DNA of 7,803 bases from Candidatus Cloacimonadota bacterium (GTDB lineage Bacteria; Cloacimonadota; Cloacimonadia; Cloacimonadales; Cloacimonadaceae): positions 1-7,803 of the forward strand of contig JAQVMI010000080.1 of the NCBI GenBank assembly GCA_028703735.1, written 5' to 3'. The translations under genes and the position numbers were made by a program. The notes under the pieces were generated by a model. It did not search any database and had not been told where the DNA came from. It worked only from the letters and a program-made list of their open reading frames with translations. Below are positions 2 through 7,803 of this stretch, in pieces (position 1 is the first letter of the stretch; every line of letters starts with the position of its first letter).

Positions 2-1408
2 GCAGGTTTGGAAATATTGTATGTGGATGTGTATGGCAATGGATACATTATTGGTAATGATGGCGAAACCATTAGCACTTTCGCTGCCCCTGCCGGAATG
101 AATATAAACCGCAGTTTTGCCTATGGACCCATAGATACTGAGGCTGGAGGTGATCTTGCTTTTTGCAGTCGTAGTGGACATATTTATGCCAGTTCCATAA
201 CCGGTGCAAATATATACTCTTACCATGCGGACACCTCATTTTTGTTTACTCCTGTTTTGGCAGATTTGGATGGAGATGGATACAGCGAAACCATTGCCGG
301 AGGTTTGGATGGCAAGCTTTATGCAGTTCAGGCAAACGGATATATGCCCTTCGGTTTCCCTGTTGATCTTGGTTCTGCTTTCCATTGTGAGCTTGCAGCA
401 GCAGATTTTGATGATGATGGAATATTTGAAATTGTTGCAGGAACTTCCGAAGGTAAGCTATATGTTCTGGATGGACAGGGAAATATAAAACCTGGATTCC
501 CCATCCAATTTACTGGTTCCATAACAGGCTCCCCCACAATAACTAATGGCAAGCGCATCGTTTGTGCTACCGGAACACAGATACACATTGTTAGCCCTGA
601 TGGCGTTATACTGAACAGCAGAAACATCGATACCCATATAACCGGTGGCTTTGCCATGGCTGATCTTACCAATGATGATTGGGGTATGGATATAGTAGGT
701 ATCAGCTTAAGTGGCGTAGTTTACGCTTTCGACCAAAATGGGTTGGATCTTAGCGGATTTCCTGTTGCAACAGGAGTTAACTTTAGTTGCCCTCCCCTAA
801 TTGCAAATATGGATGATGATCCTGAACTGGAAATTTTGCTTCATAGCTATGTTAATTCGGTTTATGGATTCAATCACGATGGCAGCCCGCTTGGCGGATT
901 TCCTTTTATAACCACCTATAATGGTAGTTCTCCTGCCTCACTAATAGATTTTGATGGCGATGGCTTTACCAAAATGGTGATGGGGCATTCCAATGGAGTC
1001 CTTATGTTGAATCTTCGCAGAAGTGCCAGTGGTCTTGCACCCTGGACAACCTTCAGAGGAAGCTCTATGAGGCAGGGATCCTTTGCTTCCACAGGCTATG
1101 TGGGAAATGAAGATAATCTGCAAAACCAAGTTATCACAAGTTTAATGCAAAACTACCCCAATCCTTTTAACCCAAGCACAACCATAAACTTTAGCATAGC
1201 CAAACCAGCTTTTGCAAAACTGGAGATATTTAATATTAAAGGACAGAAAGTTGTATCCTTACTGAATGATACAAAGGCTGCCGGAGCACATAGCATTGTG
1301 TGGGATGGCAGGGATGAAAAAGGCAGAGGTGTCTCAAGCGGTGTGTATTTATATCGCTTAAATGTGGAAGGCAAGACACTGCAAAGAAGGATGTTGTTGC
1401 TAAAATGA
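2..1408 (+). CDS. Exported beta-propeller protein with C-terminal sorting domain (5' end missing)
   Basis: This is the C-terminal part of a larger secreted protein. The frame is open to the window edge, so the TTG at 8 is an internal codon rather than a credible start; residue numbers here count from it. Residues ~1-340 form FG-GAP/VCBS-like propeller blades with calcium-loop motifs DLDGDG (86), DFDDDG (133) and DFDGDG (314). A GFP tripeptide recurs at 116, 163, 250 and 297, giving a blade of about 47 residues. From ~380 to 466 comes a FlgD-Ig-like / type IX secretion sorting domain: QNYPNPFNPST, an IFNIKGQKV strand, then SSGVYLYRL and a basic RRMLLLK end. In this family such domains direct export through the outer membrane and surface attachment. 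The missing N-terminus may carry a signal peptide and a catalytic or adhesive domain; the function of the visible part is unknown. The stop overlaps the next start as ATGA. Confidence 0.85.
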   Translation, partial: AGLEILYVDVYGNGYIIGNDGETISTFAAPAGMNINRSFAYGPIDTEAGGDLAFCSRSGHIYASSITGANIYSYHADTSFLFTPVLADLDGDGYSETIAGGLDGKLYAVQANGYMPFGFPVDLGSAFHCELAAADFDDDGIFEIVAGTSEGKLYVLDGQGNIKPGFPIQFTGSITGSPTITNGKRIVCATGTQIHIVSPDGVILNSRNIDTHITGGFAMADLTNDDWGMDIVGISLSGVVYAFDQNGLDLSGFPVATGVNFSCPPLIANMDDDPELEILLHSYVNSVYGFNHDGSPLGGFPFITTYNGSSPASLIDFDGDGFTKMVMGHSNGVLMLNLRRSASGLAPWTTFRGSSMRQGSFASTGYVGNEDNLQNQVITSLMQNYPNPFNPSTTINFSIAKPAFAKLEIFNIKGQKVVSLLNDTKAAGAHSIVWDGRDEKGRGVSSGVYLYRLNVEGKTLQRRMLLLK

Positions 1409-2109
1409 GTATTGCAAAGAATATAGAAATTATCCGTAGTAAGATAGACGCTCAATTAGAAAAATCGGGACGCTCACATGAAGAGATTACCTTAATAGCG
1501 GTTACCAAAACCTATCCTGTGGATGCTATTGAATCTGCCCTAAAAGCAGGCATAAAGCACATTGGCGAAAACAAAGTGCAGGAAGCCACGCGCAAAATCC
1601 CTTTAATTAGCACACCTTATGATGGATTCCATTTTATCGGGCACTTGCAAAGTAACAAGCTTAATGCACTACTAAATCTGAAACCTTGCCTGATACACTC
1701 CATAGATTCGGTTTACGTGGCTCAGAAGCTGCACCTTGCCTTGGGGAGGTCTAACCGATTTTCAGATATACTTATACAGATAAACAGCAGTGAAGAAGAA
1801 AGCAAAAATGGGCTAACCTTTGATACAGCAGTTTCGGCAATTTTAGATATTTCACGATACAGCACTCTTTGTATCCGTGGGTTAATGACAATTGGCAAAC
1901 TGGATGCTCCCGAGGTTAGCCGTCCCTTGTTTGCTAAAATGAAGCAGCTTTTTGAGGAACTGAAACAAATGGATATCCCAAACGTAAAAATGGATTACTT
2001 ATCCATGGGGATGAGCCACGACTATTTGATAGCCCTGGAAGAAGGCTCCAATATGCTTAGAATAGGCAGTGCGATATTTGGAAACCGTAGCTATGGAGGG
2101 CGGTCTTGA
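1405..2109 (+). CDS. yggS: YggS/PLPBP-family pyridoxal phosphate homeostasis protein
   Basis: A cytosolic PLP-binding protein with the alanine-racemase-like TIM-barrel fold but no known catalytic activity. The family buffers pyridoxal 5'-phosphate and affects amino-acid and vitamin B6 balance. The 234 residues match the usual length. Visible signatures are AVTKTYP with the PLP-binding lysine near residue 35, GENKVQEA near 54, HFIGHLQSNK near 76, SKNGL near 132, RGLMTIG near 157, and the C-terminal phosphate-binding block LSMGMSHDY...LRIGSAIFG near 198-225. The ATG overlaps the previous stop by four bases; AGAAGG lies rather far upstream (~1385-1390), so translation is probably coupled. Its own stop overlaps the TTG start of the next gene. 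The family identification is firm. Its link to the neighbouring lipid genes is unexplained; the gene may simply be a passenger in the operon. Confidence 0.95.
   Translation: MSIAKNIEIIRSKIDAQLEKSGRSHEEITLIAVTKTYPVDAIESALKAGIKHIGENKVQEATRKIPLISTPYDGFHFIGHLQSNKLNALLNLKPCLIHSIDSVYVAQKLHLALGRSNRFSDILIQINSSEEESKNGLTFDTAVSAILDISRYSTLCIRGLMTIGKLDAPEVSRPLFAKMKQLFEELKQMDIPNVKMDYLSMGMSHDYLIALEEGSNMLRIGSAIFGNRSYGGRS
2095..2100 (+). promoter_or_regulatory. Strong ribosome binding site that fixes the TTG start of the PlsY-like gene
   Basis: GGAGGG lies five bases before TTG at 2106, inside the 3' end of the YggS gene. It is the strongest Shine-Dalgarno match in the window. Together with the hydrophobic family-like N-terminus that follows, it supports a TTG start overlapping the upstream TGA. 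Confidence 0.75.
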
Positions 2110-2750
2110 GTTATTTAATTGCCTTTGTTATAGTAATAATAGCCTATCTTTATGGCAGCTTTTCCACAGCCAGGATAGTAACCAAAAGCGTAAGATCTTT
2201 AAATGTTTACAAGGTTGGCAGCGGATTTGCCGATACCGAAAACATCTATGCCAATATCAGCAAACCCCTGGGTGTATTGGTAGGTGCCTTGGATGTAGCC
2301 AAAGCCTATGTCTTTCTGCTAATTGTGGAAATGGTGCTGCGATTAATTGACCGTACAGGAAGTTTTTCAGGAATATCCACTCTGTATCAGGCAAACCTAA
2401 TGTTGCTTTATGGAACAGGCATGCTGGTGGGACATTGTTTACCATACAGCCATCACTTCCGGGGTGGACGTGGAATATTTACCTATATGGGTTTTTTAGC
2501 CTATTTTGCTTTTTACCCAATGTTGATCACTGCCATAATTGCCTGGATATTAGTTGCCCGTTTCAAGCAAATCCGGTTTGCTCAATATCTGGTGGTAATT
2601 TTACCTGTGGTGTTGTTTCAAGTTTTCTATAGCGTTTTCCCCGTATTACGCAAAGATCTCCCTCCCTATTTTGTGCCCATCATGCTGGGTGTGGCATTAT
2701 TGATGGGAATCCTGAATATCCTGGTTTCCAAGAAACTTGGCGAAATCTGA
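2106..2750 (+). CDS. plsY: PlsY-like membrane acyltransferase, divergent motif 2
   Basis: An integral membrane protein of 214 residues, close to the usual PlsY length. PlsY moves an acyl group from acyl-phosphate to sn-glycerol-3-phosphate to make lysophosphatidic acid at the inner membrane. The family pattern is visible: YLYGSFS at 14-20 (canonical GSxP), GSGFADTEN at 38-46 (canonical GSGNxGATN), LGVLVGALDVAKA at 55-67, and GHCLP...FRGGRG at 109-123 (canonical GHxFP...FKGGKG). Hydrophobic stretches at ~2-16, 56-78, 97-110, 126-150, 157-178 and 188-207 fit a polytopic membrane protein. Motif 2 keeps GSG and the last Asn but loses the middle, and the motif 3 lysines are arginines. It may therefore be a paralogue with another acceptor rather than the housekeeping enzyme. 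The start is TTG with a strong ribosome site. The next gene starts 18 bases after the stop. Confidence 0.8.
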   Translation: MSYLIAFVIVIIAYLYGSFSTARIVTKSVRSLNVYKVGSGFADTENIYANISKPLGVLVGALDVAKAYVFLLIVEMVLRLIDRTGSFSGISTLYQANLMLLYGTGMLVGHCLPYSHHFRGGRGIFTYMGFLAYFAFYPMLITAIIAWILVARFKQIRFAQYLVVILPVVLFQVFYSVFPVLRKDLPPYFVPIMLGVALLMGILNILVSKKLGEI

Positions 2751-2756
2751 TTTATT

Positions 2757-2762
2757 AGAAGG
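2757..2762 (+). promoter_or_regulatory. Ribosome binding site of the YghO-like gene
   Basis: AGAAGG lies six bases before ATG at 2769, in one of the only two gaps between genes in the window (2751-2768). The gap is too short for a promoter plus terminator, so it marks re-initiation within an operon. Confidence 0.65.
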
Positions 2763-2768
2763 TTTATC

Positions 2769-3887
2769 ATGCTAAAAGTAATTCCGGTTGACAATCACAA
2801 GCAATTAGTTCAGTTTATAATGCTGCCCTTCGATTTATACAAAAACGTTCCAGAATGGGTTCCTCCATTGATTAGCGAACAAAAAAAGTTCTTTAACCCC
2901 AAAAAGAACCCTTACTACCTGCATTCTGAGGTTAAACTTTTTTTGGCAATGCAAGATGGTAAACCTGTTGGCAGGATTTCTGCTCAATCGAACACACAGC
3001 ATAATAAGGAGCACAAGGAAAACATTGGTTTCTTTGGGTTTTTCGAATGCATTGATGATCAGAATGTGGCTAATGCCCTGTTTGAAGCTGCCTACGAATG
3101 GAATAAATACAGGGGGTTTACTTCCATGCGGGGTCCCATGAACTTCAGTGTGAACGAAGAATGCGGATTGCTGATAGATGGTTTTGACACACCTCCAATG
3201 GTGATGATGCGTCATGACCACCGCTATTACCAAAAACTGTTCGAAAACTGGGGTTTAACCAAAACTATGGATTTGTATGCTTACCTTAGTGAGCACAAAA
3301 CCATGCCCGAACGCATAGGAAAAATGGCAGAGCTATTAACCAAACGCAATAAAGTGGTTATCCGTAGTTTATCCCGGGATAAGAAACAAATGAAAAAGGA
3401 CATTGAAACTGTATTTCAAATTTACACCAAAGCCTGGGAATACAATTGGGGCAATGTTCCTATGACAAAAGCAGAGTTTGATCATATTGTAGGAGAGCTG
3501 TTACCCATAGCAGATCCGGATTTAATCTTTATTGCCGAAATTGAGGGAAAACCTGCCGGATTCAGTTTAGCACTTCCAAACTATAATGAAGTGCTAAAGG
3601 TAATGAATGGAAGGATAAACCCCATCACCCTGGTTAAAGCCATGATTGCAAAGAAGCATATCAGTTCTGCACGTGTAATTACTATGGGTGTGGTGAAAGA
3701 ATTTCAGGGACGTGGGATAGACAGCATTTTCCATTATCATTCTTATACTAACGGCTTGCCCAAGGGTTACATCCATGGAGAGTTTTCCTGGGTGCTGGAA
3801 AATAATACCTTGATGATGCACGTGGCAGAGAAACTGGAAGCGGTAATCTATAAAACATACAGGTTGTATGACAAAGCCATCTCATAA
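2769..3887 (+). CDS. YghO / bacterial ceramide synthase-like GNAT-fold acyltransferase
   Basis: A soluble or membrane-associated protein of 372 residues, full length for its family. The N-terminal half carries the family blocks WVPPL (30-34), NPYYLHSEV (47-55), GKPVGRISAQ (64-73), GFFGFFEC (87-94), and RGPMNFSVNEECGLLIDGFD (121-140) followed by PPMVMM and a YY pair. The C-terminal half resembles an N-acetyltransferase: VITMGVVKEFQGRGI (303-317) is the CoA pyrophosphate-loop type motif, and SWVLENN...KTYRLYDKAI (340-371) closes the fold. From memory, this family includes E. coli YghO and the Caulobacter GNAT-like protein that N-acylates a sphingoid base to form ceramide. The acyl acceptor here cannot be deduced from sequence; another amine or an amino-acid-linked lipid is possible. 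A PlsY-like gene precedes it and a PAP2/Aur1-like gene overlaps its end by 20 bases, which favours a lipid role. The start has a good AGAAGG site. Confidence 0.8.
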   Translation: MLKVIPVDNHKQLVQFIMLPFDLYKNVPEWVPPLISEQKKFFNPKKNPYYLHSEVKLFLAMQDGKPVGRISAQSNTQHNKEHKENIGFFGFFECIDDQNVANALFEAAYEWNKYRGFTSMRGPMNFSVNEECGLLIDGFDTPPMVMMRHDHRYYQKLFENWGLTKTMDLYAYLSEHKTMPERIGKMAELLTKRNKVVIRSLSRDKKQMKKDIETVFQIYTKAWEYNWGNVPMTKAEFDHIVGELLPIADPDLIFIAEIEGKPAGFSLALPNYNEVLKVMNGRINPITLVKAMIAKKHISSARVITMGVVKEFQGRGIDSIFHYHSYTNGLPKGYIHGEFSWVLENNTLMMHVAEKLEAVIYKTYRLYDKAIS

Positions 3888-4899
3888 GGACAGATTGCAG
3901 TTTTCTGCCAATTTCCTATCTGCCATAGATTTCATCACGCTGGTATTCTGTGGCTGGATTTTGCTGTATATGAGCTTGGGTATAATGCGTGTGCAAGATG
4001 CCGAAATACACATACCAATCTATTTGGGTGTTGCCATTTCTGTGTTAATTTTAGCATGGTGGCAGAGACAATTGGATATGGTGCTTACCTTAGCAGTGAA
4101 TGCAAAAAATACTACAGGTGCAGGGAAAAATAACCAAAATAAAAGAAACTCCGGCGCATCAGCACTCCAACACATCAACTCTACTAAAAGCTCTCGTATC
4201 TACATACCAATACTCCTCTTTATCCGCAGTATCTATCCTGTGTTTCTTTTCGGATATTTCTTCACTTCCAGCCATACCTTTAACCGCATCCTTTTTACAA
4301 GCTGGCAAGATCCCTTCTTCATGCAGATAGATAAAGCTATTTTTGGTTATTACCCCTCGTTATCCTGGGGGGTAAATTTTGCCTATCCGGCAATGCAAGA
4401 GCTGTTTCACTTTGCCTATTTTTGTTATTATCCCATGATTTTGGGGTTACCTGTATATCTGTATTTCAAGCAACCCAAGGCCTTCAGGGAGCTAATCTTT
4501 AACCTTACTTTTGTATTCTATTTATGCTATACCATCTATTCTGTTCTTCCGGTAATCGGAGGAAGGTTTATACCAGAGGCTATGGAGATTACCCAAACCT
4601 ATAGAGCCGGATTGTTCACACACATAATGGTGTTTATCTATAGAACTTCCAATCATTTGGGAGGTGCTTTTCCCAGCAGCCACATAGCAATTACTTTGGT
4701 GTTAACAGTGGCTGCACTCCGCTATTTGAAGCGCATGGGTTATGTATTTGCCATTATTGCTTTCTTCCTCTCTATCGCCACAGTCTATTGTCATTATCAC
4801 TGGTTTATTGATGCAGTTTTTGGTATATTAACCGGTATAATGGGATATTATCTTGCAAATTATGTGCGTGGTAGATTAGCTAACCTCGGATTCCATTGA
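3868..4899 (+). CDS. PAP2-superfamily (PAP2_3 / Aur1-like) membrane phosphatase or phosphotransferase
   Basis: A polytopic inner-membrane protein of 343 residues. The second half fits the PAP2_3 branch, which includes inositol-phosphoceramide synthases: IDKAIFGYYPS (154-163), ELFHFAYFCYYP (178-189), YSVLPVIGGRF (224-234), then GGAFPSSH (265-272) with the proposed acid/base His272, and ATVYCHYHWFIDAVFG (304-319) with nucleophile His311 and Asp315. Such enzymes cleave lipid phosphates or transfer a phospho-head group using a phosphohistidine. Helices are predicted near 17-38, 48-66, 112-133, 183-200, 206-226, 274-286, 292-308 and 312-331. Residues ~78-110 form an unusually polar Asn/Lys/Ser loop between helices 2 and 3. 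ATG 3868 lies inside the previous gene with only a weak AGG before it; an alternative TTG at 3895 (residue 10) has AAGGA at 3886-3890. Both starts keep all helices. The substrate is unknown; a role with the preceding acyltransferases is inferred. Confidence 0.85.
   Translation: MTKPSHKDRLQFSANFLSAIDFITLVFCGWILLYMSLGIMRVQDAEIHIPIYLGVAISVLILAWWQRQLDMVLTLAVNAKNTTGAGKNNQNKRNSGASALQHINSTKSSRIYIPILLFIRSIYPVFLFGYFFTSSHTFNRILFTSWQDPFFMQIDKAIFGYYPSLSWGVNFAYPAMQELFHFAYFCYYPMILGLPVYLYFKQPKAFRELIFNLTFVFYLCYTIYSVLPVIGGRFIPEAMEITQTYRAGLFTHIMVFIYRTSNHLGGAFPSSHIAITLVLTVAALRYLKRMGYVFAIIAFFLSIATVYCHYHWFIDAVFGILTGIMGYYLANYVRGRLANLGFH
3886..3890 (+). promoter_or_regulatory. Possible ribosome binding site for an alternative TTG start of the PAP2 gene
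   Basis: AAGGA immediately after the YghO-like coding sequence sits four bases before an in-frame TTG at 3895. TTG is used with confidence at 2106 in this window, so the PAP2 protein may begin here, nine residues shorter than the ATG-based model. Confidence 0.35.
4157..4180 (+). repeat. Three degenerate 8-base tandem units inside the PAP2 gene
   Basis: CATCAGCA, CTCCAACA and CATCAACT follow one another directly. The first and third share six of eight bases, and the middle unit shares the C..CA-C- skeleton. Three units add 24 bases and so keep frame. They encode part of the polar loop between helices 2 and 3. The match is weak and could be chance. Confidence 0.3.
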
Positions 4900-4916: not shown

Positions 4917-5963
4917 ATGAATAAATCACTAAGCCTGTTCCTGCTAACCATCCTGTTCGTAACAGTTCTGGGAGCTCAACAAACCCCTTTGCCCATTACC
5001 TCTTACGATTATGCCATACCCGAAAACAATGTTTCTCCTATTGCAATGGCAATGGGTGCCATAAACCTTAGCAATGTGGATGATCCTTATGCAGCCTACA
5101 CAAATCCTGCCTTATTAGCGTATGGAGAACTAAATTCTTTCTCCACTTCCTTCCGGCTTCGCAATAGCGCGGAGATCAATTTTTGGGAAGCTGCCAATAT
5201 AAGCAACGCACTAAAGGACAAACAATTCAAGTATTTCGTGGTTAATGCCAAACAGGCTTCCTTTAGCTATCAGCCTGTTGCAGGTGTGCATTTAAGTGAA
5301 TTTAGCCCCGATGGTTATACCAGCCGTTATTACGACTATCAATTGGACAAATTGCAGATTTCTTTGGGTGCCAAAGATCAAAAGTTCGAAAAACTTGGTG
5401 CAGGCATAAGTCTAAAATATTTATCGGGACGTCTGGTGTATTTAACAGAACGCAAGGTAGGCAACACTATGGTGCGTGAAGGATTCATCGATGATAAAAT
5501 TAAAGGGTTTTCCACCGATTTAGGTTTTACTTTCAAGCAAGGGAATGTAACTTATGCTGGCACAGCTTACGACATTGTTTCACGCATGTGGTGGGAAAAT
5601 TATGATGCCGTATCCATAAAGCGCAGAATGGCTTTAGGCATGGGCTGGGATAGCGAAAGCAGCCACTTTGTATTAGGGGTTCAAAGCCGCATTTCCAGCA
5701 ATCCCGAAACTACCTATCATCTTGGATATGGATACACCTGGGATTTTGGAACCAGCAGCACCACCAGCGAAACGTCCACTAAGCAAACCATGGATATCAG
5801 AGCCGGGGTTTACAGCAAGAATTTTTACGGCACAGGTAATATAAATTACACCCTGGGAGGCGGATACAATTATCATAATATCCGCTTTGATTTCTCGCTG
5901 AATAATACTGCCATGAAGCTTTCCGATAGCGAATATCTGTTCTCTTTGGGATTGGGTATCTAA
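4917..5963 (+). CDS. Predicted outer-membrane beta-barrel protein, PorV/FadL-like
   Basis: A protein of 348 residues, exported and probably inserted in the outer membrane. Residues 1-20 are a Sec signal peptide (MNKSLS, a hydrophobic core, then VLGA before QQ). After it comes SPIAMAMGAINLSNVDDPYAAYTNPALLAYG (40-70), with the small-residue 'G-A ... D-P-x-A-x-x-x-N-P-A' pattern typical of the N-terminal plug of FadL, PorV and related barrels. The rest alternates hydrophobic and polar residues in many strands (for example LGAGISLKYLSG, FSTDLGFTF, YHLGYGYTWDFG, INYTLGGGYNYH) and ends in a strand, YLFSLGLGI. The terminal residue is Ile rather than the common Phe, which is slightly unusual. The role is unknown. 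PorV-type proteins carry type IX cargo, which is relevant because the first gene encodes a cargo-like protein, but no specific PorV signature is claimed. An upstream in-frame TTG at 4896 was not used. The stop TAA abuts the next ATG. Confidence 0.75.
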   Translation: MNKSLSLFLLTILFVTVLGAQQTPLPITSYDYAIPENNVSPIAMAMGAINLSNVDDPYAAYTNPALLAYGELNSFSTSFRLRNSAEINFWEAANISNALKDKQFKYFVVNAKQASFSYQPVAGVHLSEFSPDGYTSRYYDYQLDKLQISLGAKDQKFEKLGAGISLKYLSGRLVYLTERKVGNTMVREGFIDDKIKGFSTDLGFTFKQGNVTYAGTAYDIVSRMWWENYDAVSIKRRMALGMGWDSESSHFVLGVQSRISSNPETTYHLGYGYTWDFGTSSTTSETSTKQTMDIRAGVYSKNFYGTGNINYTLGGGYNYHNIRFDFSLNNTAMKLSDSEYLFSLGLGI

Positions 5964-7803
5964 ATGTTTCAGCTTTCCTTCCTAAATGCTTCCTTACTGT
6001 TTTTTGCAGCGGCAACCATTTTACCATTGCTTATCTGGCTGTTAGCCAAGAAGAAACCCCTAAGAGTGCTGTTTCCAACCTTAAGATTTATTAAACAGAG
6101 CAAAGAACAGGAAAAAAGCCGCAGTAAGCTAAAAAACATCCTGCTCTTGATAATCCGCATGCTGATAATCCTTTTGGTTGCCCTGGCTGTAGCCCGTCCT
6201 ATGTTTAGCTCTGCCAAACTGAAGCCGTCTTCCAAACATCCTCCCACAGCCATTGTAATCATGCTGGATACATCCTACAGTATGGATTATGCCGAAAGCG
6301 GAAAAAGCTCTCTGCAATACGCCAAGGATGCTATAAAAAAGATTAATTTGCGTGCCAATTCTGATGACCGTTTAATTCTGATAAGCAGCAACGAAAACTG
6401 GAACCAACTGCATGCACAAATATATGCAGGGAAAATTCCCGAATCTCTTTTGGAAAACATCTCTGTTACCCACAACCCTCTGGATTTGGCTGCTATGTTA
6501 TCTCTGGCAGAAGCGAAGCTGCAGGAAAGCCAAATGCCAAACCGGGAAATATATCTAATTACAGATAATAGGGTGGAGCCAATTAAGCTGGAAGCTTCTG
6601 CTCCCATAGCTCTTATTCCTCTTCCGGAAAGCAGCAGCTACGAAAACATAGCCTGCACAGATGCCAGAGTACTTCCCCAACTTGTGGAAAAACGACGTAA
6701 GCAATCCATCCAATTCACTATAGCGAATCATGGCAATAATGAACGCAAAGATGTGCTGGTAAAGGCAGTTATAGGCGGCATCAAATTAGCAGAACGCTTT
6801 GTGGATGTACCAGCCAGACAAACCATAACAGAAAGTATCACCCTGGAATTGCAAAGCGAAGGCTGGCAAACAGGCTACATAGAAGTTCTGGATGAACGCC
6901 TATTACAGGATAACAGAAGCTATTTTGCCTTTCCTTTTTATGACAAACCACGGTTAGCAGTAGTTTCTCTCAGCCAGAATTTACCCTTCATCCTTTCTTC
7001 ATTGCTAAATGTTTACACGGGTGGTTACACCAAAATTATCACTCCTAACGAATTGTCCCTTGGCACTTTGGATAATTACCAGATATTGGTTCTGCACGAT
7101 AGTGGAGCTTTGTCTCCCAGGCTAAGAGAGGTTCTAACCGAAGCTAAAGCCCGCAAAATTGGGGTGCTTTTTTTACCGGCAAACAATCTGGCTGCCGATA
7201 TGAAAGCTTATCTGAACAGCACTTTCAAAGTAGATATAAAAGAGCGCAGCACCAAACCGATTAGTATAGATCAGCTAAACCGCCATCACTACGTAAGCTC
7301 TATAGCATCGGATAAAAATCTTAAAAATCGCATAATTAGCGATTATTGGGTGGCTAATTCCCAAGGAGCGAATGCAATAGTATCAGCTAAGAAAAACCCC
7401 TTGCTGATAGTGGAGGGAAAGCAAAGCCTCTGGTTATGGAATATTGCCAGCTTACAAAACCCCTTCTTTGTAGATCCTGCCTTCCCTGTAATGGCATTTC
7501 GTAATTTTGATTACCTGGCAAATGCCGAAATTTCTGAAAGCCAAATCCTTATTGGAGATGTGCTTAGTTTCAATAAACTTCGTTTGCCAAATGGCGAAAT
7601 TTCCAGCTCTCGTCGGCATAAAACTTTGGAGCCTGGTATCTATATTCTGGAGCCGGAAACACCACAAGAAAGTGCCGTAGCCATAAACATAGATTATAAA
7701 GATTCCGAAGCGCGCCTAAATCCACCTTCCGGAGCTAAAATCCTGGGTAAAAATTGGGAGAAACAGCTCTTCTTTTCGCGCTTAGGTCACGATTTATGGC
7801 GGG
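5964..7803 (+). CDS. BatA-type membrane protein with vWA domain (3' end missing)
   Basis: An open frame without stop for 613 codons runs to the window end. The first ~80 residues fit the BatA / aerotolerance regulator N-terminal domain: helix ~7-28 ending in WLLAKKKP, then VLFPTLRFIKQSKEQ, then helix ~57-78 ending in ALAVARPMF. A von Willebrand A domain follows, with the metal-site motif DTSYS at 102-106 and ITDN at 199-202. The usual Thr of the second metal-site loop appears to be Leu173 in NPLDLAAML. Residues ~245-320 look like a CARDB/Ig-like beta domain (FTIANHG, then LLQDNRSYFAFPF), and ~329-420 like a Rossmann or glutamine-amidotransferase-like domain (LDNYQILVLHDSGALS). The visible end, FSRLGHDLWR, is the kind of sequence that precedes the last membrane helix in this family, so perhaps only a few dozen residues are lost. 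These proteins are often near MoxR ATPases and DUF58 proteins, which are not in view. Biological role is unproven in the family. Translation probably couples to the preceding gene (TAAATG). Confidence 0.88.
   Translation, partial: MFQLSFLNASLLFFAAATILPLLIWLLAKKKPLRVLFPTLRFIKQSKEQEKSRSKLKNILLLIIRMLIILLVALAVARPMFSSAKLKPSSKHPPTAIVIMLDTSYSMDYAESGKSSLQYAKDAIKKINLRANSDDRLILISSNENWNQLHAQIYAGKIPESLLENISVTHNPLDLAAMLSLAEAKLQESQMPNREIYLITDNRVEPIKLEASAPIALIPLPESSSYENIACTDARVLPQLVEKRRKQSIQFTIANHGNNERKDVLVKAVIGGIKLAERFVDVPARQTITESITLELQSEGWQTGYIEVLDERLLQDNRSYFAFPFYDKPRLAVVSLSQNLPFILSSLLNVYTGGYTKIITPNELSLGTLDNYQILVLHDSGALSPRLREVLTEAKARKIGVLFLPANNLAADMKAYLNSTFKVDIKERSTKPISIDQLNRHHYVSSIASDKNLKNRIISDYWVANSQGANAIVSAKKNPLLIVEGKQSLWLWNIASLQNPFFVDPAFPVMAFRNFDYLANAEISESQILIGDVLSFNKLRLPNGEISSSRRHKTLEPGIYILEPETPQESAVAINIDYKDSEARLNPPSGAKILGKNWEKQLFFSRLGHDLWR

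What the first reader, a model, noticed from the sequence alone, without database searches (positions are those of the whole stretch)
2106..4899. Candidate lipid-assembly cassette: PlsY-like, YghO/ceramide-synthase-like and PAP2/Aur1-like genes in a row
Three consecutive genes, spaced by 18 bases and then overlapping by 20, encode a PlsY-like acyltransferase, a GNAT-fold protein of the bacterial ceramide synthase-like family, and a PAP2_3 protein of the Aur1-like branch. Seen directly: the motifs and the coupling. Known: YghO-like GNAT proteins include a bacterial ceramide synthase, and Aur1-type PAP2 proteins add phospho-head groups to ceramide. Inferred: a pathway making an N-acylated lipid and changing its phosphate head group, in a lineage whose sphingolipids are, to my knowledge, undescribed.
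Basis: partly seen in the sequence, partly recalled or inferred. Interest (0 to 1): 0.7.

Follow-up and report, generated by a model that had tools for sequence, protein, structure and literature searches.

The report
Ceramide-making operon of Cloacimonadota bacteria
In Cloacimonadota, a phylum of mostly uncultured bacteria, a conserved gene row pairs a relative of bacterial ceramide synthase with a protein predicted to fold like the fungal enzyme Aur1, and the two likely build and decorate sphingolipids in a group where I found no paper that assigns genes to these steps.

Summary
The three genes are real, at the stated coordinates and spacing. The lineage is Cloacimonadota.

The GNAT gene is a full-length member of the YghO/bacterial ceramide synthase (bCerS) family. 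The PAP2 gene has the H/H/D residues and, in a confident AlphaFold2 model, the whole Aur1/inositol-phosphorylceramide-synthase topology, not only the PAP2 core. Serine palmitoyltransferase (Spt) is in this genome; CerR orthologs occur in most relatives but not in this 81% draft.

Of 70 good phylum genomes, none has Spt or CerR without a YghO-family GNAT, and the 5 without the GNAT lack both. In four genomes missing Spt and CerR, GNAT and PAP2 are gone from the row while the PlsY-like gene stays.

So GNAT and PAP2 likely belong to ceramide synthesis. The PlsY-like gene probably does not: it has lost most of the glycerol-3-phosphate clamp.

Against: GNAT was never seen near Spt; one genus mostly lost this GNAT but kept Spt and CerR; PAP2 is patchier; no activity was tested.

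Spt-like genes in Cloacimonadota were already reported (PMC11334938). The bCerS, CerR and Aur1-like assignments are new as far as my searches reach.

The parts
2769..3887 (+). GNAT1: YghO/bCerS-family N-acyltransferase, proposed ceramide synthase
3868..4899 (+). PAP2_3 protein of the Aur1/IPC-synthase type, proposed ceramide head-group phosphotransferase
2106..2750 (+). PlsY1: divergent PlsY-fold paralog with altered acceptor site, neighbour of the module, function open
   Evidence: PF02660 4.3e-22 but 50.7 bits against a TIGR00023 cut-off of 137.2; G3P-clamp residues lost; kept in genomes lacking Spt/CerR/GNAT/PAP2
1405..2109 (+). YggS-family PLP protein, upstream gene of the row, not part of the proposed pathway
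   Evidence: TIGR00044, 197.4 bits against a cut-off of 106.25
4917..5963 (+). PorV/PorQ-like protein, downstream gene of the row, not part of the proposed pathway
   Evidence: weak NF033709 match, 21 bits against a cut-off of 90
5964..7802 (+). BatA/VWA protein (runs off the window), downstream gene of the row, not part of the proposed pathway
   Evidence: PF07584 6.7e-17, PF13519 1.6e-7

Best explanation
The GNAT gene (2769-3887) belongs to the YghO/bacterial ceramide synthase family and the PAP2 gene (3868-4899) has a predicted Aur1-type fold; in Cloacimonadota they likely carry out the N-acylation and the head-group step of sphingolipid synthesis, with Spt and CerR encoded elsewhere in the genome. 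Proposed route (inferred): Spt condenses serine and acyl-CoA to 3-ketosphinganine in the cytoplasm; the GNAT adds the second acyl chain there; CerR reduces the keto-ceramide; the PAP2 protein moves a phospho-head group from a phospholipid onto ceramide. The order acylation-before-reduction is taken from the Caulobacter work (PMC11087976, passages read) and is disputed there. The head group is unknown. The adjacent PlsY-like protein is probably an acyltransferase-fold paralog with another acceptor, and is not needed for this pathway.
For: Spt in this genome: G000:C261, best PDB matches are solved Spt (3a2b, 8guh, 430 bits) against 276 for the best protein named Kbl alone (7v58) and 285-286 for one named 8-amino-7-oxononanoate synthase/Kbl; orthologs in 94 of 124 phylum genomes. 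CerR orthologs in 98 of 124 by my threshold. YghO-family GNAT in 113 of 124. Of 70 genomes at >=90% completeness and <=5% contamination: GNAT with Spt 62, GNAT only 3, Spt only 0, neither 5 (Fisher 4.6e-6); GNAT with CerR 63, 2, 0, 5 (1.7e-6). In 8 of the 11 genomes without any such GNAT, Spt and CerR are missing too, in six lineages, three of them nested in families whose other genera keep the pathway. In G050 and G054 the row reads YggS-PlsY1-PorV-BatA, in G067 YggS-PlsY1-BatA and in G105 YggS-PlsY1; GNAT, PAP2, Spt and CerR are absent from all four. The single-contig genome G001 has exactly one YghO-family GNAT at E<=1e-10, the one in this row, plus Spt and CerR. GNATs 36-38% identical sit beside Spt, with a CerR-type gene in the same cluster, in Rubrobacter, Aureispira and Streptomyces, and in E. 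coli BL21 three genes, an epimerase among them, lie between yghO and spt. A Marinimicrobia GNAT 47% identical is directly followed by a CerR-like gene. PAP2: whole-length match to IPC synthase/Aur1, while LpxE, PgpB and G6PC match the core only. PAP2 homologs lie directly behind a CerR homolog in Bacteroides, Prevotella and Phocaeicola. Precedent: the AUR1-like BT_1522 is needed for phosphoinositol dihydroceramide in B. thetaiotaomicron (PMC9246714, passages read).
Against: GNAT1 was not seen near Spt in any of 82 genomes with both: in 81 the two lie on different contigs (some short, so nearness across a contig end is not excluded) and in G001 over 1 Mb apart. CerR was not found in the window's own genome (81% complete). 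Genus g6 mostly lost this GNAT: of 10 such g6 genomes 7 keep Spt and 9 keep CerR, with a family member only about 28-30% identical where I looked closely; G080 also has Spt and CerR without this ortholog. By orthologs of this GNAT alone the 70-genome table is 56/2/6/6 (p 1.7e-4). Two good genomes (G029, G103) have GNAT1 and CerR but no Spt ortholog, and two (G065, G085) have GNAT1 and Spt but no CerR. PAP2 against Spt in good genomes is 43/3/19/5, p 0.11. The Marinimicrobia genome with GNAT-CerR has only 33% or less identical alpha-oxoamine synthases. Of eight annotated plasmid regions that I opened around YghO-family GNATs, five hold Spt and three (Diaphorobacter, Bacteroides, Tunicatimonas) do not; they were picked partly because Spt hits shared their records. 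Best structural matches of the GNAT are acetyltransferases. Sequence similarity of PAP2 to AUR1 is marginal (E 0.009-0.011; a phosphatase scores 0.013). MIPS is in only 17 of 124 genomes. Fisher values ignore relatedness. No activity was measured.
Confidence: 0.68

Rival explanations
1. The PAP2 protein is a lipid phosphatase (LpxE/PgpB/YodM-like) that removes phosphate from ceramide phosphate or another lipid, instead of transferring a head group.
Against: Only AUR1/IPC synthase among the lipid enzymes listed aligns more than 250 residues, 15-335 with the N-terminal helices; homologs pair with a CerR homolog in Bacteroidales; it is missing together with GNAT from rows in genomes without Spt and CerR.
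Confidence: 0.25
2. The GNAT N-acylates some amine other than a sphingoid base (an amino acid, a sugar amine, or a sulfonolipid base), and its link to Spt and CerR reflects shared loss in certain lineages.
For: The YghO family is very large (7458 of 8000 scored candidates hit); this GNAT was not seen near Spt; tandem copies in some genera suggest several substrates; in two f12/f13 genomes a further copy lies beside radical SAM/SPASM genes; the best structural matches are acetyltransferases; three of eight opened plasmid regions have no Spt.
Against: 0 of 70 good genomes keep Spt or CerR without a family member; relatives in Rubrobacter, Aureispira, Streptomyces, Roseomonas and Sphingomonas share a stretch with Spt, and the Marinimicrobia one abuts a CerR-like gene; the phylum's Spt scores 430 bits with solved Spt and 236 with the solved cysteate acyltransferase 28eh.
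Confidence: 0.15
3. The ceramide synthase of the phylum is the distant Bacteroides-type GNAT2, and GNAT1 does something else.
For: In g6 genomes such as G015, G017, G018, G019 and G022 a single, distant family member is found with Spt and CerR present; those of G019 and G022 are of the Bacteroides type in the tree.
Against: In 28 of 49 family f1 genomes GNAT1 is the only family member found, the single-contig G001 with Spt and CerR among them; all bCerS references with Spt or CerR neighbours fall on GNAT1's side of the tree, GNAT2 with Bacteroides on the other (100/100).
Confidence: 0.1
4. The trio is an ordinary glycerolipid module: PlsY makes lysophosphatidic acid and the neighbours are unrelated housekeeping genes.
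For: PlsY1 belongs to PF02660 and is the only such gene found in the 81% draft.
Against: R45, K104 and the HxxN motif are lost and T41 is changed; clamp residues are needed for full activity in aaPlsY (PMC5700162, passages read; K104R kept 25%); a second PlsY-fold protein with the HxxN motif exists elsewhere in G001.
Confidence: 0.07

Closest known systems
Bacterial ceramide synthase bCerS/CerS (Caulobacter CC_1154; E. coli BL21 YghO)
   Same: Full-length family membership, 35.6% to an E. coli YghO, same size, and in the phylum the same genomes carry Spt and CerR
   Different: Sits with a divergent PlsY paralog and a PAP2 gene instead of with spt, acpR, aasR or cerR; forms its own clade (87/82 support). 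The Caulobacter protein itself was not compared: its sequence was not at hand
Aur1 / inositol phosphorylceramide synthase, and bacterial BT_1522
   Same: Whole-length predicted fold and the H/H/D residues
   Different: 11-14% identity in structure alignments; only 9 of 71 genomes counted with PAP2 have a MIPS gene, so the head group is probably not inositol in general. BT_1522 itself was not compared
PlsY acyl-phosphate:glycerol-3-phosphate acyltransferase (aaPlsY 5xj5)
   Same: PF02660 fold family; the acyl-phosphate-side H92 and the GG of loop 3 are kept
   Different: G3P phosphate clamp mostly lost; D in place of G39 in 33 of 33 orthologs examined
Serine palmitoyltransferase of Bacteroidota (NF047600, 3a2b)
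   Same: Cloacimonadota alpha-oxoamine synthase scores highest with it
   Different: 577.9 bits, under the curated cut-off of 640; its gene is apart from the GNAT

Membership tests
bacterial ceramide synthase (bCerS/YghO) | full-length homology to YghO and to GNATs beside Spt/CerR | tested here: met
   35-47% identity over 99-100% of the protein to YghO, Rubrobacter, Aureispira, Streptomyces and Marinimicrobia GNATs
bacterial ceramide synthase (bCerS/YghO) | Spt and CerR in the same genome | tested here: met
   Met across the phylum: 62 of 65 good genomes with the GNAT family have Spt, 63 of 65 have CerR. In the window's own draft Spt is found and CerR is not
bacterial ceramide synthase (bCerS/YghO) | usual but not required: gene near spt or cerR | tested here: not met
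   Not seen near Spt in any of 82 genomes; PMC11334938 says co-localization is not required, and PMC11324152 that cerS always lies in another operon than the de novo genes (passages)
bacterial ceramide synthase (bCerS/YghO) | N-acylates 3-ketosphinganine or sphinganine | not testable with these tools
   needs enzyme assay or complementation
Aur1/IPC-synthase type PAP2_3 | whole-length fold with N-terminal helices | tested here: met
Aur1/IPC-synthase type PAP2_3 | H/H/D catalytic residues | tested here: met
   H272, H311, D315 invariant in 53 sequences, aligned ungapped to AUR1; that these are the catalytic residues is recalled
Aur1/IPC-synthase type PAP2_3 | inositol supply in the same genomes | tested here: inconclusive
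   MIPS in 17 of 124, including this genome; 71 of 124 counted with PAP2 (73 at E<=1e-3, two of them weak), 9 with both
Aur1/IPC-synthase type PAP2_3 | transfers a phospho-head group to ceramide | not testable with these tools
   needs assay
PlsY (G3P acyltransferase) | PF02660 fold family | tested here: met
   4.3e-22; aaPlsY 4e-6
PlsY (G3P acyltransferase) | G3P clamp S35, R45, K104, N180 and H177 | tested here: not met
   Window: S, A, R, no HxxN in the last 45 residues; 33 orthologs: K104 in 0, R45 in 2, HxxN in 1 and there not at the C-terminal end
PlsY (G3P acyltransferase) | curated TIGR00023 score | tested here: not met
   50.7 against 137.2
serine palmitoyltransferase | closest to solved Spt rather than Kbl, BioF, HemA or CFAT | tested here: met
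   430 bits with 3a2b/8guh against 276 (Kbl 7v58), 285-286 (a protein named BioF/Kbl), 236 (CFAT 28eh) and 209 or less (BioF alone); the solved Sphingomonas-type Spts score 278-284
serine palmitoyltransferase | curated NF047600 score | tested here: inconclusive
   best family, 577.9 bits, under the cut-off of 640

The most novel reading that the evidence does not exclude
Cloacimonadota make phosphosphingolipids by a dispersed pathway in which this row supplies both the ceramide synthase and an Aur1-type ceramide phosphotransferase with a head group that is mostly not inositol; the same PAP2 branch, found directly behind a CerR homolog in Bacteroidales, is a second, unassigned bacterial ceramide head-group enzyme there, for instance for phosphoethanolamine dihydroceramide, whose production was unaltered by loss of BT_1522 (PMC9246714).
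Probability: 0.35. Interest if true: 0.75.

Novelty: new variant of a known kind. Interest (0 to 1): 0.6.

Why it matters
PMC11334938 (passages) found Spt-like genes in Cloacimonadota but no bCerS or CerR within 10 ORFs and offered rearrangement, replacement by unrelated proteins, or fragmented assembly as reasons. This work favours rearrangement: homologous bCerS and CerR candidates are present at other loci. It names one gene for each step in anaerobes that reach 14% of reads in deep Black Sea water (PMC11868695, passages), so ceramide production there becomes directly testable. It also points to an Aur1-like enzyme tied to ceramide genes in two phyla, which bears on how bacteria put phospho-head groups on sphingolipids.

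Tried and rejected
Rejected: a single three-gene pathway including PlsY1 (kept without the other genes; clamp lost). Rejected: the second alpha-oxoamine synthase of the draft as Spt (L003 is Kbl, 509.2 bits over the PRK06939 cut-off of 460). Rejected as a clue: the neighbours of Spt (SurE, PCMT, cNMP-binding protein, AI-2E transporter, PEPCK-like). Considered and not upheld: an LTA-synthase-like head-group enzyme behind CerR as in Rubrobacter; the 562-736 aa proteins behind CerR in the five Cloacimonadota regions tested plus one shorter piece have no such domain, TonB_C in three. Inositol as the general head group: MIPS too rare. PDB sequence searches with the GNAT alone and the PAP2 alone found nothing. 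A four-term paper search that included bCerS found none. Papers on this phylum: Cloacimonadota + sphingolipid gave 4 papers, of which I read passages of two; Cloacimonas + ceramide gave 0; Cloacimonetes + serine palmitoyltransferase gave 0. The library lacks most subscription papers; Stankeviciute 2022 (PMC8891067) was not held and is known to me only through other papers and recall.

Papers, all seen as passages only: PMC11334938, PMC11868695, PMC9386255, PMC11087976, PMC11324152, PMC5700162, PMC11633183, PMC9246714, PMC9278070; all others only as search listings.

Presence thresholds are mine: GNAT1 E<=1e-80; Spt the set at >=64% identity, fragments included; CerR about E<=1e-57, with G084 (two contig-end fragments) and G091 (3.8e-57) counted as present and G119 (3.6e-55, in a group of paralogs at 1e-47 to 1e-57) as absent. 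Tool lists were capped, but the best hit of every matching genome is in the genome tables used. The joint-loss test has no species tree and no unlinked control gene; PlsY1 (61/5/1/3 against Spt, p 3.9e-3) and PAP2 (p 0.11) are the only comparisons. The second Foldseek look cannot list folds that Foldseek missed. GNAT trees used a hand-fetched part of the family: 64 rows, then 62 after I left out the very long GNAT_Tunic row and a duplicate of the Marinimicrobia row; loci L038, L039, L041 and L045 were left out of both, and rows under 300 residues were not used.
Full report
What was given. The finding names three genes in a row at 2106-4899. Searches confirm them: a PF02660 (PlsY-fold) protein at 2106-2750, a 372-residue GNAT protein at 2769-3887 and a PAP2_3 protein at 3868-4899, with an 18-base gap and a 20-base overlap as stated. 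The row is longer than three genes: an FG-GAP/FlgD_ig protein (2-1408), YggS (1405-2109), then the trio, a weak PorV/PorQ-like protein (4917-5963) and BatA/VWA (5964 on). In the single-contig relative G001, DXS and MnmE follow.

Where it comes from. The window is contig C287 of a 2.50 Mb, 472-contig draft, 80.8% complete. Named relatives with 56-83% identical GNATs are Candidatus Cloacimonadota MAGs. All phylum counts below are over the 124 genomes held for this phylum, or over the 70 of them at least 90% complete and at most 5% contaminated.

The rest of the pathway. The draft holds an alpha-oxoamine synthase (G000:C261:5958-7130) whose best solved matches are Spt 3a2b and 8guh at 430 bits, against 285-286 for a protein named 8-amino-7-oxononanoate synthase/Kbl, 276 for the best protein named Kbl alone, 278-284 for Sphingomonas-type Spts, and 236 for the solved cysteate acyltransferase. 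NF047600 is its best family but under the curated cut-off. Spt orthologs occur in 94 of 124 genomes. A profile of five CerR-type proteins gives a high-scoring group, in 98 of 124 by my threshold, with a few paralogs between it and the other epimerases. CerR was not found in the window's own draft. YghO-family GNATs occur in 113 of 124 by profile; the ortholog in this row occurs in 97.

Co-occurrence. Of the 70 good genomes, 62 have a YghO-family GNAT and Spt, 3 the GNAT only, none Spt only and 5 neither (Fisher 4.6e-6). With CerR the figures are 63, 2, 0 and 5 (1.7e-6). For the row's own GNAT ortholog against Spt they are 56, 2, 6 and 6 (1.7e-4). For PlsY1 they are 61, 5, 1 and 3 (3.9e-3), and for PAP2 43, 3, 19 and 5 (p 0.11) (all). 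These p-values ignore relatedness. Of the 11 genomes without any such GNAT, 8 (G049, G050, G053, G054, G058, G066, G067, G105) lack Spt and CerR as well, in six lineages. G050 (family f3), G066 and G067 (f10) and G105 (f11) sit in families whose other genera keep the pathway. The other three are G061 and G077, which keep both Spt and CerR, and G087, which keeps CerR; they are 82, 73 and 67% complete.

Natural deletions. In G050 and G054 the row reads YggS, PlsY1, PorV-like, BatA, with PorV-like directly behind PlsY1; G067 has YggS, PlsY1, BatA, and G105 has YggS, PlsY1. All four lack GNAT, PAP2, Spt and CerR. This separates GNAT and PAP2, which are gone with the pathway, from PlsY1, which stays. 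The reverse case is genus g6: ten genomes lack GNAT1, and where I looked it is missing from between PlsY1 and PAP2 (L109, L110, L179), yet 7 of the 10 keep Spt and 9 keep CerR. Eight of them have a family member only 28-30% identical to GNAT1; those of G019, G022 and G026 are of a Bacteroides type, GNAT2. Either GNAT2 took over there or GNAT1 is not the sole ceramide synthase. In G021 and G025 of that genus GNAT1 lies elsewhere in the genome. In the tree GNAT2 and a Bacteroides GNAT split from all other rows with 100/100 support; GNAT1 and every reference with Spt or CerR neighbours are on the other side.

The PlsY-like gene. Against aaPlsY, with residue roles from PMC5700162 (passages), the window keeps S35 and H92 but has A for R45, R for K104, E for T41 and D for G39, and no HxxN in its last 45 residues. 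Over 33 orthologs K104 occurs in none, R45 in two and D39 in all. A second PlsY-fold protein with HxxN lies elsewhere in G001. The protein is of the PlsY fold but should not be filed as PlsY. An acyl-phosphate-dependent transfer to another acceptor is a guess.

Adjacency and its limit. PlsY1 and GNAT1 are neighbours in all 84 genomes that have them on one contig; GNAT1 and PAP2 in all 59; GNAT1 and Spt were seen together in none of 82, 81 of them on separate contigs and one, G001, over 1 Mb apart. This agrees with PMC11334938 (passages), which found Spt-like proteins in 33 Cloacimonadota MAGs and no bCerS or CerR within 10 ORFs. PMC11324152 (passages) notes that bacterial cerS always lies in another operon than the genes needed only for de novo synthesis.

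Verdict. What is shown: family membership, predicted fold, co-occurrence, joint absence and context. What is inferred: that GNAT1 N-acylates the Spt product, that PAP2 puts a phospho-head group on ceramide, and the order of steps. No lipid or enzyme was measured.

Noticed in passing
L191:5784-7747; L195:3699-5708: In Bacteroides finegoldii and Prevotella a CerR homolog is directly followed by an Aur1-type PAP2 gene, at a locus other than BT_1522; a candidate second ceramide head-group enzyme of Bacteroidales.
   Followed up: partly
L051:7721-12021; L053; L052; L054: Several family f10 genomes carry two or three GNATs in tandem behind PlsY1, one of them on a very long branch (GNAT3).
   Followed up: partly
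L058:7650-11636; L120:9028-11563: Two class-level relatives (G114 of f13, G106 of f12) have a bCerS-like GNAT outside the row, next to radical SAM/SPASM proteins.
   Followed up: no
L168:9738-12367; L170:7120-10097; L171:2772-5827; L174:7279-10520: CerR in Cloacimonadota is next to an uncharacterised 562-736 aa protein, some with a TonB_C domain, in several families.
   Followed up: partly
L047:7286-11497: A Marinimicrobia contig has GNAT, CerR-like, NfeD and Band 7 genes in a row, but its genome shows only 33% or less identical alpha-oxoamine synthases.
   Followed up: partly
L128:1-13113: A plasmid of Diaphorobacter typed as conjugative IncP carries a bCerS-like GNAT with LptF/LptG, CDP-alcohol transferases and a fatty acyl-AMP ligase, so parts of a sphingolipid cluster may be mobile.
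   Followed up: no
L041:5643-6761: In one same-genus genome (G002) the GNAT reading frame is split by an in-frame stop.
   Followed up: no
L173:928-2680; L108:8229-11605: The Bacteroides-type GNAT2 lies beside a second PlsY-fold gene in two fetched loci, in one of them with EngA between: a second PlsY-GNAT association in the phylum.
   Followed up: partly
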